Shown piece after piece: positions 29,175 through 33,869 of a stretch of 33,869 bases of DNA. The notes beneath the pieces are model-generated. The model saw nothing but the letters and a program-made list of their open reading frames with translations, was not told where the DNA came from and made no database searches. The position numbers and the translations under genes were made by a program. How positions within the stretch are numbered: the stretch's first letter is position 1; every line of letters starts with the position of its first letter. The DNA comes from Sphingomonas sp. 28-63-12 (GTDB taxonomy: Bacteria > Pseudomonadota > Alphaproteobacteria > Sphingomonadales > Sphingomonadaceae), in assembly GCA_002281535.1 (NCBI GenBank), contig NCGD01000028.1, positions 1-33,869 on the forward strand. The letters are read 5' to 3'.

Positions 29175-30290
29175 TCAGCGCGTCGCTGTCGGTGCCGCCG
29201 TATTGCCGTCCGCCGCCGCCGTTACCGGAGCGGCCGCTGCCGGCGCAGCCGCCGGCGCTACAAGGACGGCAGGCGCTGGTGCCGGTGCCCCCATCAGCGC
29301 CGGATAGTCTTTCAGCATACTCACCCCACCCAGCGGCTTGTTGATCCCCTGGTGGCAGGTGGTGCAATTCGCCTTCAGCACATCGCCATAAGGACCCTTG
29401 CGGTTGGCCGGGAAGACCGAAGCGAGCGAGGCGATATACTTGTTGTTGATTTCGCCCACCATCCGGATGCCGTACCAGGCCTGCGCCCGCTGCGGCCGGC
29501 TGTTCGACCAGCTCGAAAAGCTGTCGGTATTATGGCAATAGGTGCAGTTGACGTTGAGCGCCGATGACATGTGCATCATCAGGCCATAGGTCTTCTCGGT
29601 CTTGGCGATCGATGCCCCGGGCGTCGCCCCGCGCAACGCACTGACGCCCTGGACGCGGATATTGTTCTTCGCGCCAAGATAGGTGGTGAACGGATCATAG
29701 GGCAACGAGCTGAAGGCAACGCTCGCCACCGGCGTGTCCTGCCCATGCTTGTTGCTCATCACCCTGACCGGACCGCCGGCCGGCGCATCCGCCATCGCCC
29801 AGACATTTTTGGGGATCACGTTACCGGCATGGCAGGTGTAGCAGGTGACGCCTGTCTGTTTGACGTGCGGCGTCCAGTTCTGATTGATGTTGATCGTCAT
29901 CTGCAACATCCGCCGGGCGACAACTTTGGTGTAAAGTTCGTCGGAGGCCATGTTGTTGGGGTTGTGGCAATAATTGCAGCCCTGTTCGGGCGGGGCGATC
30001 CAAGTGCTGATCGCGGCCATCAGATGGTTGAACCGCTCGGTGCTGACATTGCCCAGCACTTTGACGTTCTGATAGGTCTCGCTGGCACGCGGCCCGCTAT
30101 CGTCCGGCGTGGCATAGGGCGGTGCGGGCACCGTCTGCGCGACCAGCCGCTTGGTGGCGATGATCTGGTCCGCGCCCGTGCCGCGATACCCGGTCTGTTC
30201 GATTTTCCGGTGACCGAATTCGCAAGCCGACATGGTCAGCATGACCGATCCGGCCAGGATCGTCTTGGTGATGGTGGCGACGCGGATCAT
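29175..30290 (-). CDS. pufC: Tetraheme reaction-centre cytochrome c subunit
   Basis: This 371-residue protein has four CxxCH heme sites at residues 105-109 (CNYCH), 150-154 (CYTCH), 249-253 (CTYCH) and 309-313 (CTTCH), arranged as two pairs as in the family. A lipobox-like leader (TMSAC, C23) predicts an N-terminal diacylglycerol anchor. It re-reduces the photo-oxidised special pair on the periplasmic side. The tail after residue 335 is an Ala/Pro-rich extension of unknown role. The start at 30290 overlaps the pufM stop (ATGA); the open frame upstream lies within pufM. It is the last gene of the puf operon. Confidence 0.97.
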
Positions 30291-31261
30291 TGCGGTGCTC
30301 CCGGCAAAGTGGCTGGATCGACAACACCGGTGGAGGGATAGGCAGGCGCGTAACCGTGCTGCTGTGCCCATAGGTACCAGTTATCGACGACGGTGCCCGT
30401 CAGCAGGATACCAATGCCGCCCGTAAGCGTCGTCAGCACCGCAAACCACCAGGCCCAGCGGTGGATCGATTCCATCGTGGCGTTGAACCCCATCGTCCAG
30501 CGCCAGAAAAGGGCGGCGCGTTCAGATGCGGTACCACGATCGGTAATTTGCTCGATTTCGCGCTCACCGCCATACCGACCAACGGCCAGGATGGTCGCCC
30601 CGTGCATCGCGAACAGCAGCGTCGACCCGTACAGGAAGGCGATCGAGAGCGCGTGGAAGGGGTTGTAGAACAGATTGCCGTAGCGGATCGAGAAAGCCGC
30701 GGTCCAGTCGAGATGCGGGAAGATGCCATAAGGCACCGCCTCCGACCAGCTGCCCATCAGCATCGGCCGGATGAAGCCCAGCACCAGCATCAGCCAGATC
30801 GCGCTGAGAAACGCCCAGGAGACGTGCGTGCCCATGCCAAGCGCAAGCGCGCGGCGATAGGTGCGCGCCCACCAAAGCAGGACAGAAGCGCTGAAGAAGA
30901 AGCCGGTGATGATGAACCAGCCACCTTCGGCCAGCGGCACCATCGCCTGGAAGCCATATTTCGGCGCCGGCGGCTCGAGCGACAGCCAGAACAGCTGCCG
31001 GACGAACTGGATCGGGTTCCAGCCGACCGAGGCCAGCATGTTGAGACCGATGATCTCGAAAGCGATCAGGCCGAACACCAGCGACAAGGTGCCTAGCCAG
31101 CCGAGATAAATGGGGCCGATCTGCGCGTTGCCGATCTTGCCCAGCCAATAGGAGAAACCGCCCGCCTTGCTGCGGATTTCATGGGCGTCGTTGGTGGGTG
31201 GCCCCATTTCGGGGACACCGCGCAACTGCACCTGCGTAAAGATATTCTGATAGGTTGCCAT
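30287..31261 (-). CDS. pufM: Photosynthetic reaction centre M subunit
   Basis: This 324-residue, five-helix core subunit has special-pair and iron ligands in place: H183 (FPHLDW), H203 (NPFHALS), H220 (AMHGATI) and H267 (ESIHRWAWW), plus E235. These are one residue offset from Rhodobacter sphaeroides M numbering. The ATG at 31261 is set by GGGGAG nine bases upstream. It overlaps pufC by four bases and starts 14 bases after the pufL stop. Confidence 0.97.
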
Positions 31262-32454: not shown

Positions 32455-32673
32455 TTATACGCTGGCCGAGTGGATCGGCGCGGGCTGCACGAGCGCTGCG
32501 GCATTTTTATAGCCGTCCGTGCCCGGGAACCATGGACGCCACTGCCAGACCAGGAAGTGGGCAATGATGGCCACAATGGTGAAGAACCCCATGCTGACCA
32601 CGAACAGCTTGTGGAATTCCTTCGCTTCGTCGGGCGTCAGGTAGGTACCTGGCCCCATTCTATCGTCGCTCAT
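32455..32673 (-). CDS. pufB: Light-harvesting 1 beta polypeptide
   Basis: This 72-residue antenna protein carries [13 protein letters not shown] before the helix and the bacteriochlorophyll ligand H39 in [18 protein letters not shown]. The C-terminal extension beyond residue 53 is longer than usual. AAGGAA precedes the ATG by eight bases. The ATG overlaps the stop of a 47-codon ORF upstream (ATGA). Confidence 0.97.
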
Positions 32674-32813
32674 ACGTTCGTTCCTTCATCTTCGTTCGAC
32701 CCGACGAGATCAGGCGCGCGGCACGCGTCCCCCGGCGGCATCCACGCAGCGCGAAACGCCACGAAGATCTGGTGATCCGCTTGACGCGGAAATCGGAAGG
32801 CGGGGGCGATCAT
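32670..32813 (-). CDS. 47-residue micro-ORF coupled to bchZ and pufB
   Basis: The ORF begins at an ATG overlapping the bchZ stop (ATGA, 32813-32810) and ends with a TGA overlapping the pufB ATG (32673-32670). AGGAG lies three bases before its ATG. The product ([20 protein letters not shown], then [16 protein letters not shown] and an acidic end NEDEGTNV) has no membrane segment and one Cys. About 70% of third codon positions are G or C, compatible with coding. It occupies the place of pufQ in Rhodobacter but shows no PufQ-like helix. I do not recognise it. It may act only as a coupling device for pufB translation. Confidence 0.5.
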
Positions 32814-33869
32814 GCGCTCCTGCTTTCGGTGATCGCGAGCGCGAGGCGCTCGGCGGTGACTTTCGCCTCGCCCGCGCGGCGCGCGCCACGCTCGGCGGCA
32901 TCGCGGATGCGCTTGGCGGCAGAAATGCGGACCAGCACCGGCTCGCGCTCGACAACCGCGTCCAGCTCCACTTTGGCCTCGTCTTCCCACATCAGCTCGC
33001 GTTCCATTCGCGCCGGTGTCGCCTCGACCTGATCGAGTTGGGCGGCGAGTGGGATGATGTTGAACAGCGCATCGAACAGCGCGTTGCACACTTCCTGGAT
33101 GAGGTAGGTTGCGCCCGAATAGCCCATATAGGGCGTGCCGGTATGGCGGCGGATCGCGGCGCCGGGGAAGGACACAGGCACATAAATGCTGCGCGCGCCC
33201 GTCTCGGCGAGATACATGCGCTCGTTGTAGCTGCCGAACATGATCAGCGGCGGGTTGGTGCGGATCGATTCCAGCACCGCAGCATTGTCGGGCTTCACCC
33301 CCGCCGTCCGCCGGAACGAGAAGTTGCAGGGCAACCCCATGTCGTTTTCGAGGAAATTGCGGATGCCGCGTTCATAGGTTTCGGTCGCCACGACGGCAAA
33401 ACTCGCGGTTGCGAAGAAATCCTGCGTTACCGAACGCCACAGATCCCAGAGCGGCTTGATCGTGGTGTGCTTTTCTTGGCTGATGAACGGCTCGGGATCG
33501 AGCCCGGTCAGCTCGCCGAGCTTGCGCAGGAACAAGGTCGTGCTTTCCAGCCCGATCGGCGCCTGTAGGTAGGGCCGCTCCAATGCCTCGCACAGCCCGC
33601 GTCCGAACTCGCGATACATGCACACATTCACATGCGCGTTGGCGAGTTTCTTGACGTCGGCGAGATGGCTGCCGAGCGGGAACACCATGTTGATCTGCGC
33701 GCCGATGCCCTCGACCAGCCGCCGGATCTCGGCCAGGTCGCTCGGCATGTTGAAGGTGCCGTACATCGGGCCGATGATGTTGACGCGCGGCTTTTCGCCC
33801 TCGCGCAATTCCTTCAGGCTCGGCACTTTCTTGGGGCCGAACTGCGTCCACAGCCAGGTCAGCGCGCGG
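32810..33869 (-). CDS. bchZ: Chlorophyllide reductase subunit Z (5' part beyond window)
   Basis: The C-terminal ~352 residues of about 490 are present; the frame runs off the right edge. BchZ pairs with BchY as the nitrogenase-like catalytic unit that, with BchX, reduces ring B of chlorophyllide. Typical segments are [63 protein letters not shown], and the C-terminal basic helix [19 protein letters not shown]. It runs directly into the micro-ORF and pufB, so bch(C)XYZ and puf are probably one superoperon. Confidence 0.95.

What the first reader, a model, noticed from the sequence alone, without database searches (positions are those of the whole stretch)
32670..32813. Micro-ORF locked between bchZ and pufB where pufQ is expected
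A 47-codon frame starts in an ATGA overlap with the bchZ stop and ends in an ATGA overlap with the pufB start, with an AGGAG before its ATG. Four-base overlaps on both ends are unlikely by accident and fit the coupling style of this cluster. PufQ (about 75 residues, with a membrane helix) is absent and could not fit. The peptide is soluble-looking with an acidic end. It may be a new small factor, a remnant, or a leader that sets pufB translation.
Basis: partly seen in the sequence, partly recalled or inferred. Interest (0 to 1): 0.75.

Follow-up and report, generated by a model that had tools for sequence, protein, structure and literature searches.

The report
Sequence-free relay ORF before pufB
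Between two photosynthesis genes lies a tiny reading frame whose openness and end points are kept by selection while the peptide it spells is not, so it probably serves only to carry ribosomes to the next gene.

Summary
In detail: minus strand, 32813..32670, 47 codons, ATGA overlaps with bchZ and pufB. I compared 128 distinct Sphingomonadales-type bchZ-pufB gaps, the window's included. Read from the start codon inside the bchZ stop, the frame has 6 stops in 5207 codons up to 17 nt before pufB; the other two frames have 55 each. In 120 of 128 its first stop falls within -17 to +12 nt of the pufB ATG, against 42 and 31 for the other frames. The peptide is not conserved: substitutions fall evenly on codon positions (68/67/62; bchZ 128/71/863), and a shared DNA motif is read in all three frames. 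The window differs from its closest relatives by +1 nt early and -1 nt just before pufB, which changes nearly the whole peptide and keeps both overlaps. So this is neither a new protein nor a passive pufQ remnant. It is best explained as a ribosome-relay ORF that couples pufB to upstream translation over a 140-nt gap, at the start site pufQ uses elsewhere. The closest precedent is pufK of Rhodobacter sphaeroides. Selection on the frame is shown; re-initiation is inferred.

The parts
32670..32813 (-). relay micro-ORF, 47 codons plus TGA
   Evidence: frame kept open in the 128-locus set; peptide not conserved
32810..32813 (-). ATGA overlap of the bchZ stop and the micro-ORF start (where pufQ starts in many other lineages)
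   Evidence: ATG or GTG at this place in 122 of 128 loci, A before the stop in 103 of 128 against 7.1% background; an ORF of at least 60 aa starts inside the bchZ stop in 25 of 36 comparator loci of pufQ type
32670..32673 (-). ATGA overlap of the micro-ORF stop and the pufB start
   Evidence: first stop of the frame at +1 in 75 of 128 loci
32817..32821 (-). AGGAG, Shine-Dalgarno-like, inside the last bchZ codons
   Evidence: SD match of 4 nt or more at this place in 54.7% of 128 loci against 23.2% at in-frame control places in bchZ
32682..32686 (-). AAGGA, Shine-Dalgarno-like site of pufB, inside the micro-ORF
   Evidence: SD match of 4 nt or more before pufB in 97.7% of 128 loci
32713..32743 (-). 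conserved DNA element GGATGCCGCC plus hairpin-like arms, read in different frames in different relatives
   Evidence: motif in frames 44/12/12 of 68 loci where it was found; arm-swap signal over relatives with mixed controls; the window's own fold is less stable than shuffles (z +1.9)
32810..33869 (-). bchZ, chlorophyllide a reductase subunit Z, cut by the window end
   Evidence: TIGR02014, 552.6 bits, E 8e-166
32455..32673 (-). pufB, LH1 beta subunit, 72 aa
   Evidence: NF040862, E 4.7e-21

Best explanation
The micro-ORF is a relay that delivers ribosomes to pufB. A ribosome that ends bchZ, or one that starts at the AGGAG in the bchZ tail on an mRNA begun inside bchZ, initiates at the ATGA, translates about 47 codons of no particular sequence across the roughly 140-nt gap, unfolds it, stops on top of the pufB start and re-initiates there with the help of the pufB Shine-Dalgarno site. 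Selection keeps the start, the absence of stops and the place of the stop; it does not keep the peptide. The start codon sits where pufQ starts in many other lineages, so the relay probably took over, or survived from, a coupling role of pufQ after the PufQ protein was lost. Shown: the frame, its ends and the lack of peptide constraint. Inferred: that it is translated, that pufB is reached by re-initiation, and the link to pufQ.
For: Stops upstream of -17 nt: 6 in 5207 codons in this frame, 55 in 5201 and 55 in 5168 in the other two. Open to -17 nt in 124 of 128 loci against 84 and 79; averaged over 43 gap clusters 98.6% against 63.8% and 60.6%, reached by none of 20000 sign flips. The bias follows the bchZ-anchored frame: in the 33 loci whose pufB is in the second phase the frame is open in 33, against 21 and 20. 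The first stop lies within -17 to +12 nt of the pufB ATG in 120 of 128 loci (42 and 31 for the other frames). By parsimony on two bchZ trees at least 75-76 length changes need only 22-25 phase changes, null mean about 41, 0.0005 of nulls at or below; long-range closure of this frame needs 3 changes against 23 and 29. In all 6 loci where the frame would fuse with pufB a stop comes first. No peptide selection: 68/67/62 substitutions by codon position in 19 disjoint pairs, bchZ 128/71/863. In tested gene pairs re-initiation is almost abolished by spacings of about 20 nt (PMC10666635, abstract), so a 140-nt gap would need a bridge.
Against: No expression data; translation is not shown. Four of 128 loci stop far upstream of pufB (L148, L184, L187, L191), 6 of 128 lack ATG/GTG at the overlap, and pufB is still recognised there. 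8 of 128 do not end within -17..+12 nt. Other puf operons seem to manage without this relay: of 15 loci with gaps of at most 200 nt but another PufB type (one of them, L053, titled Sphingomonadales) only 6 are open to -17 nt in this frame (pufQ was not searched for in them). pufB has its own Shine-Dalgarno match of 4 nt or more in 97.7% of loci, so it could initiate alone. The AGGAG-to-ATG spacing in the window is only 3 nt. The phase null is simple (a random phase per distinct length) and the trees are quick ones from bchZ alone.
Confidence: 0.66

Rival explanations
1. Bridge for RNA protection: the frame is translated so that ribosomes cover the gap and keep Rho or RNase E off the bchZ-puf mRNA; re-initiation at pufB is secondary.
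For: It explains the lack of stops with a free peptide sequence equally well. RNase E cleavage within pufQ helps set puf mRNA stability in Rhodobacter (PMC6238624, passages).
Against: It does not predict the preference for the exact ATGA end: the first stop is at +1 in 75 of 128 loci and the ATGA phase holds in 89 of 128 against 33 and 6.
Confidence: 0.16
2. RNA-only regulatory region: hairpins and the pufB ribosome site are what is conserved and the open frame is incidental.
For: A conserved motif and hairpin-like arms at a similar place (about -55 to -28), with own arms pairing better than arms swapped between loci; fold z below -1 in 31% of loci against 11% of a bchZ control.
Against: RNA structure does not explain why one frame anchored on the bchZ stop is depleted of stops about ninefold while the motif itself moves between frames. 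RNAalifold finds no consensus structure on the two alignments tried, and two of three upstream controls give the arm-swap signal too. The window's own fold is less stable than shuffles.
Confidence: 0.07
3. A small functional protein encoded by the ORF.
For: Length is stable (median 47 aa, IQR 44-49, range 13-70 in the 122 loci with ATG/GTG); start and stop are kept; 109 of 128 peptides match at least one other at E<1e-3, which in-register neighbours would give.
Against: Substitutions even over codon positions, GC 0.62/0.64/0.67 by position against 0.75/0.47/0.80 in bchZ, nearly whole-length frameshift against the closest relatives, no family match; the window peptide matches only one (L166) of the other 127 at E<1e-3.
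Confidence: 0.03
4. Passive remnant of pufQ under no selection.
For: Same place and start codon as pufQ in other lineages; pufQ not found.
Against: Neutral decay would close all three frames alike; the other two are closed upstream of -17 nt in 44 and 49 of 128 loci, this one in 4. No PufQ similarity (best E 1.4, against 0.0009-0.047 for six Rhizobiales-type loci).
Confidence: 0.03
5. A pufK-like gate that slows ribosomes by rare codons before pufBA.
For: pufK is an ORF of the puf operon said to gate ribosome entry into pufBA by rare codons (Gong and Kaplan 1996 as cited in PMC5725709, passages).
Against: Only 3 of 44 scored codons are rare in the window; codon adaptation 0.58 is above pufA (0.48) and near pufB (0.62), against a mean of 0.71 (sd 0.08) for 47-codon windows of genes. 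The sequence is free to change. Codon rarity was scored in the window only.
Confidence: 0.05

Closest known systems
pufK of Rhodobacter sphaeroides (Gong and Kaplan 1996, known here only through PMC5725709, passages)
   Same: A short ORF of the puf operon thought to control ribosome entry into pufBA rather than to make a working protein. In 35 pufQ-pufB gaps of Rhodobacterales-type loci the frame ending at +5 of pufB is also the most open one (26 of 35 without stops upstream of -17 nt, against 9 and 12), so a weaker relay may exist there.
   Different: pufK stands in an operon that has pufQ; here there is none, the ORF starts inside the bchZ stop and fills the whole gap, rare codons are few in the window, and a kept frame with a free sequence is shown over many genera. 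The pufK sequence itself was not compared.
pufQ at the bchZ stop in Rhodobacterales (PF05398)
   Same: Same position and often the same 4-base start overlap with bchZ (stated for Rba. sphaeroides in PMC5725709).
   Different: No hydrophobic stretch by reading, no PufQ similarity, about 47 aa instead of about 75, and it ends on the pufB start, whereas pufQ is followed by a gap of 110-216 nt in the 35 loci measured.
Short upstream ORFs that only deliver a ribosome to the next gene; mycobacterial MIRU elements (review PMC12548453, passages)
   Same: The ORF's function is to bring ribosomes to a coupled gene, not its peptide.
   Different: Here it is a lasting part of one operon across the phototrophic members of an order, linked at both ends and evolving by compensated frameshifts.
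Termination-reinitiation at ATGA overlaps (PMC6728339, PMC10666635; abstracts)
   Same: Four-base overlaps at both ends.
   Different: Those abstracts concern pairs of genes; here one partner has no conserved protein.

Membership tests
PufQ (PF05398) | sequence match to the family | tested here: not met
   0 matches at E 10 in the own genome and 0 of 54 relatives at E 0.01; the same model rings in 81 of 198 genomes of a Rhodobacterales-type family. A model built here from pufQ-type loci gives best E 1.4 among 128 micro-ORFs.
PufQ (PF05398) | about 75 aa with one membrane helix | tested here: not met
   47 aa; no hydrophobic stretch by reading, no helix program was run.
PufQ (PF05398) | position directly after bchZ with start overlap | tested here: met
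pufK-type gating ORF | short ORF just before pufB | tested here: met
   ATGA overlap with pufB.
pufK-type gating ORF | rich in rare codons | tested here: inconclusive
   3 of 44 codons below 0.1 relative use; adaptation 0.58 against 0.71 (sd 0.08) for gene windows; window only.
pufK-type gating ORF | sequence relation to pufK | not tested
   pufK sequence not in hand.
translationally coupled gene pair (termination-reinitiation) | overlap or very short distance between stop and next start | tested here: met
   -4 nt at both ends in the window; full overlap at both ends in 73 of 128 loci; stop within -17..+12 nt in 120 of 128.
translationally coupled gene pair (termination-reinitiation) | downstream expression depends on upstream translation | not testable with these tools
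   needs reporters or mutants.
protein-coding gene under purifying selection | third-position excess of substitutions | tested here: not met
   68/67/62 in 19 pairs against 128/71/863 in bchZ of the same pairs.

The most novel reading that the evidence does not exclude
Across the phototrophs of a bacterial order one operon carries an ORF whose only selected property is to be an open frame with fixed ends. It is a ribosome conveyor rather than a gene, left by or replacing pufQ and missed by annotation. Its signature, frame-specific stop depletion without codon periodicity and with compensated frameshifts, could be searched for in any operon and may reveal a class of such relays; a weaker trace of one lies between pufQ and pufB in Rhodobacterales-type loci.
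Probability: 0.6. Interest if true: 0.72.

Novelty: new variant of a known kind. Interest (0 to 1): 0.62.

Why it matters
Small ORFs are usually sorted into 'makes a protein' or 'noise'. This one is under clear selection yet makes no conserved peptide, which supports, in nature and over many genera, the proposal that some ORFs only deliver ribosomes to the next gene. It also gives a candidate answer to how Sphingomonadales, which lack pufQ, keep pufBA tied to the bch genes across a gap far longer than re-initiation tolerates in tested pairs. The one Sphingomonadales record whose annotation I could see has no feature between bchZ and pufB (Novosphingobium capsulatum; that gene table is known to be incomplete), and a single stop-codon mutant would test the idea.

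Tried and rejected
Homologue search with the peptide: only the own locus scored well among 149 family genomes; the other matches (E 0.009-0.1 in 20 further genomes) were weak and I did not follow them. Peptide reading as a protein family: rejected. PufQ or a PufQ remnant still coding: rejected; the controls rang only below the cut-off (5 of 14) and those not at all, so the positive controls are. Rare-codon gate: weak. RNA structure: mean fold z -0.37 over 128 loci, 0.21 in a bchZ control of 64; a best-stem test gave 15.1 observed, 12.5 shuffled, but 14.9 in the upstream part of the gap, with 16% of loci at p<=0.05; RNAalifold gave no structure on two alignments; swapping arms between 64 representatives gave a signal (own 13.8, distant swaps 11.9), but two of three upstream control positions gave one too. 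I treat the hairpin as possible and secondary. A test of frames anchored on pufB showed little difference (stop rates 0.0046, 0.0079, 0.0054; upstream of pufL 0.017, 0.017, 0.037), which is expected if the frame is anchored on bchZ; one search checked this by phase. For pufQ-type loci one search suggested no common bridge before pufB, but a proper count on checking shows that the frame ending at +5 of pufB is the least closed in 35 pufQ-pufB gaps (15 stops in 1492 codons against 40 in 1517 and 28 in 1511); the frame was picked after the fact and is open back to pufQ in 13 of 35. Literature searches 'bchZ + pufB + small ORF' (0 papers), 'pufB + ribosome profiling' (1 paper, not read), 'pufK' (2 papers, one of them not read) and 'pufQ + Sphingomonadales' (3 papers, passages of one read) showed me no report of this ORF in Sphingomonadales; the held library lacks most subscription journals, and Gong and Kaplan 1996 was not read.

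Rows dropped: 191 loci (L024-L214) were examined; L100 had no pufB start, 190 gave 172 distinct gaps, and 44 of these were left out of the 128 because the gap exceeded 200 nt or PufB was not of the Sphingomonadales type as judged by short residue strings. Fifteen of the 44 were looked at separately. Rows G355, G406, G397 and G022 and G605 were not fetched because the match lay at a contig edge or was partial. One search kept the best 80 of 588 relatives.

Full report
Observation. The window carries bchZ, the micro-ORF, pufB, pufA, pufL, pufM and a pufC-like cytochrome in that order on the minus strand (only bchZ and pufB were scanned against family models, the other names rest on reading). The micro-ORF runs from 32813 to 32670, 47 codons plus TGA. 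Its ATG overlaps the bchZ stop by four bases and its stop overlaps the pufB start by four bases. AGGAG lies 3 nt before the ATG, within the bchZ tail. bchZ and pufB are confirmed by NCBIfam models. The peptide has no Pfam or NCBIfam match at E 10.

Data set. BchZ was used to collect junctions: it was found in 17 of 101 and 42 of 295 genomes of the genus and 77 of 397 of the family; 80 named contigs came from a scan that kept the best 80 of 588 relatives. Matches without a locus were fetched, apart from five rows that were partial or at contig edges. Of 191 loci, 190 had a pufB start; 172 gaps were distinct; 128, the window's among them, had the Sphingomonadales type of PufB and a gap of at most 200 nt.

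The frame is kept. Call the frame that starts in the bchZ stop frame 0. Up to 17 nt before pufB it holds 6 stops in 5207 codons; frames 1 and 2 hold 55 in 5201 and 55 in 5168. It is open to that point in 124 of 128 loci, frames 1 and 2 in 84 and 79; averaged over 43 clusters of gap sequence the figures are 98.6, 63.8 and 60.6%, and none of 20000 sign flips reached the difference. The first stop in frame 0 falls within -17 to +12 nt of the pufB ATG in 120 of 128 loci, and exactly on the ATGA in 75. The phase of pufB is the ATGA phase in 89 loci, the next in 33 and the fusion phase in 6; in all six a stop comes before pufB. In the 33 loci of the second phase frame 0 is still open in 33, the other frames in 21 and 20, so the frame is anchored on bchZ and is not inherited from a block next to pufB. 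By parsimony on a protein and a nucleotide tree of bchZ, at least 76 and 75 length changes need only 25 and 22 phase changes, where random phases per length give about 41 (0.0005 at or below), and long-range closure of frame 0 needs 3 changes against 23 and 29 for the others.

The ends are kept. The base before the bchZ stop is A in 103 of 128 loci although A makes up 7.1% of bchZ wobble bases; ATG or GTG stands there in 122, and the stop is TGA in 125. Shine-Dalgarno matches of four bases or more precede this start in 54.7% of loci against 23.2% at control places in bchZ.

The peptide is not kept. In 19 disjoint pairs of equal gap length, substitutions fall 68/67/62 on the three codon positions, while bchZ in the same pairs shows 128/71/863. 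GC by codon position is 0.62/0.64/0.67 against 0.75/0.47/0.80 in bchZ. A DNA motif found in 68 loci is read in frame 0, 1 and 2 in 44, 12 and 12 of them. The window's own ORF is a neat case: against 11 relatives aligned, among them L025, L042 and L150 with 96-97% identical BchZ, it has one extra base near 32806 and one fewer just before pufB, so nearly the whole peptide is out of register, yet both ATGA overlaps and the open frame remain. Two compensating sequencing errors would be needed to explain this away. Among the 128 peptides 109 match another at E<1e-3, as close neighbours in register must; the window's matches only L166.

pufQ. The PufQ model finds nothing in the own genome or in 54 phototrophic relatives; the same model rings in 2 of 385 genomes of the class and 81 of 198 genomes of a Rhodobacterales-type family. 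In 25 of 36 comparator loci an ORF of 60 aa or more starts inside the bchZ stop (the eight printed look like PufQ), as annotated in Roseobacter litoralis and Sulfitobacter alexandrii. Zheng et al. 2011 state that pufQ is absent from the puf operon of the Sphingomonadales they studied, two strains (PMC3176799, passages). A PufQ model built from these loci does not match the micro-ORFs (best E 1.4) but does reach six Rhizobiales-type loci (E 0.0009-0.047). So the start site is shared and the protein is gone; direct descent of the present DNA from pufQ is not shown.

Mechanism. Tested gene pairs almost lose termination-reinitiation when stop and start are about 20 nt apart (PMC10666635, abstract). 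bchZ and pufB are about 140 nt apart in the window. A translated frame with overlaps at both ends removes that distance. A review describes the idea that a short ORF may only deliver a ribosome to the next gene (PMC12548453, passages). In Rhodobacter sphaeroides pufK has been proposed to gate ribosome entry into pufBA (PMC5725709, passages citing Gong and Kaplan 1996). The free sequence argues against a stalling peptide, few rare codons in the window argue against a codon gate (3 of 44), and the preferred ATGA end argues for re-initiation over mere covering of the mRNA. That the ORF is translated at all is inferred.

A trace elsewhere. In 35 pufQ-pufB gaps of Rhodobacterales-type loci the frame that ends at +5 of pufB holds 15 stops in 1492 codons against 40 in 1517 and 28 in 1511, and is open in 26 of 35 loci against 9 and 12; it is open back to pufQ in 13. 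The frame was chosen, and start codons in it are scattered, so this is a lead only. It would fit pufK and the relay idea.

RNA elements. Within the ORF, about 55 to 28 nt before pufB, many loci can form a short hairpin at a similar place, and own arms pair better than swapped arms; but shuffles, RNAalifold and upstream controls give mixed results, and the window's own stretch is less stable than shuffled sequence. A relay ribosome would open such a hairpin just before pufB, but this is a side point.

Limits. Four of 128 loci (L148, L184, L187, L191) stop well upstream of pufB. Of 15 loci with gaps of at most 200 nt but another PufB type (by record title Hyphomonadaceae, Caulobacteraceae, Gammaproteobacteria and others, one titled Sphingomonadales) only 6 show the open frame, so the relay is not a need of every puf operon. 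Of annotated Sphingomonadales records I saw one: Novosphingobium capsulatum has nothing listed between bchZ and pufB (an incomplete gene table), though its gap holds a 48-codon frame with the same two overlaps.

Change on checking. The earlier statement that pufQ-type loci lack any common frame before pufB was wrong and is replaced.

Noticed in passing
window 29175-30371, minus strand: A 398-aa ORF after pufM with four CxxCH motifs (read) looks like a tetraheme pufC; PMC3176799 states that the Sphingomonadales it studied lack pufC. The listed ORF start overlaps pufM by 85 nt, so the true start is probably later.
   Followed up: no
window 32713-32743 and the same place in relatives: A motif around GGATRCCGCCGGG about 45-75 nt before pufB is recognisable in 68 of 128 loci by a loose pattern and is not explained by the relay idea; it may be an RNA element or a protein site.
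   Followed up: partly
first half of the bchZ-pufB gap, about 20-56 nt from the bchZ stop, in relatives: Own-arm pairing also exceeds swapped arms here at two of three offsets, hinting at a second hairpin.
   Followed up: partly
L216-L251, pufQ-pufB gaps: The frame ending at +5 of pufB has the fewest stops (26 of 35 open against 9 and 12), a possible weaker relay or pufK-like frame. Distance from the bchZ stop to pufB is 334-438 nt in 34 of 36 loci.
   Followed up: partly
window 33869: The window ends inside bchZ at the end of contig C26 of G000 (54 contigs), so the upstream part of the operon was not seen in this genome.
   Followed up: no
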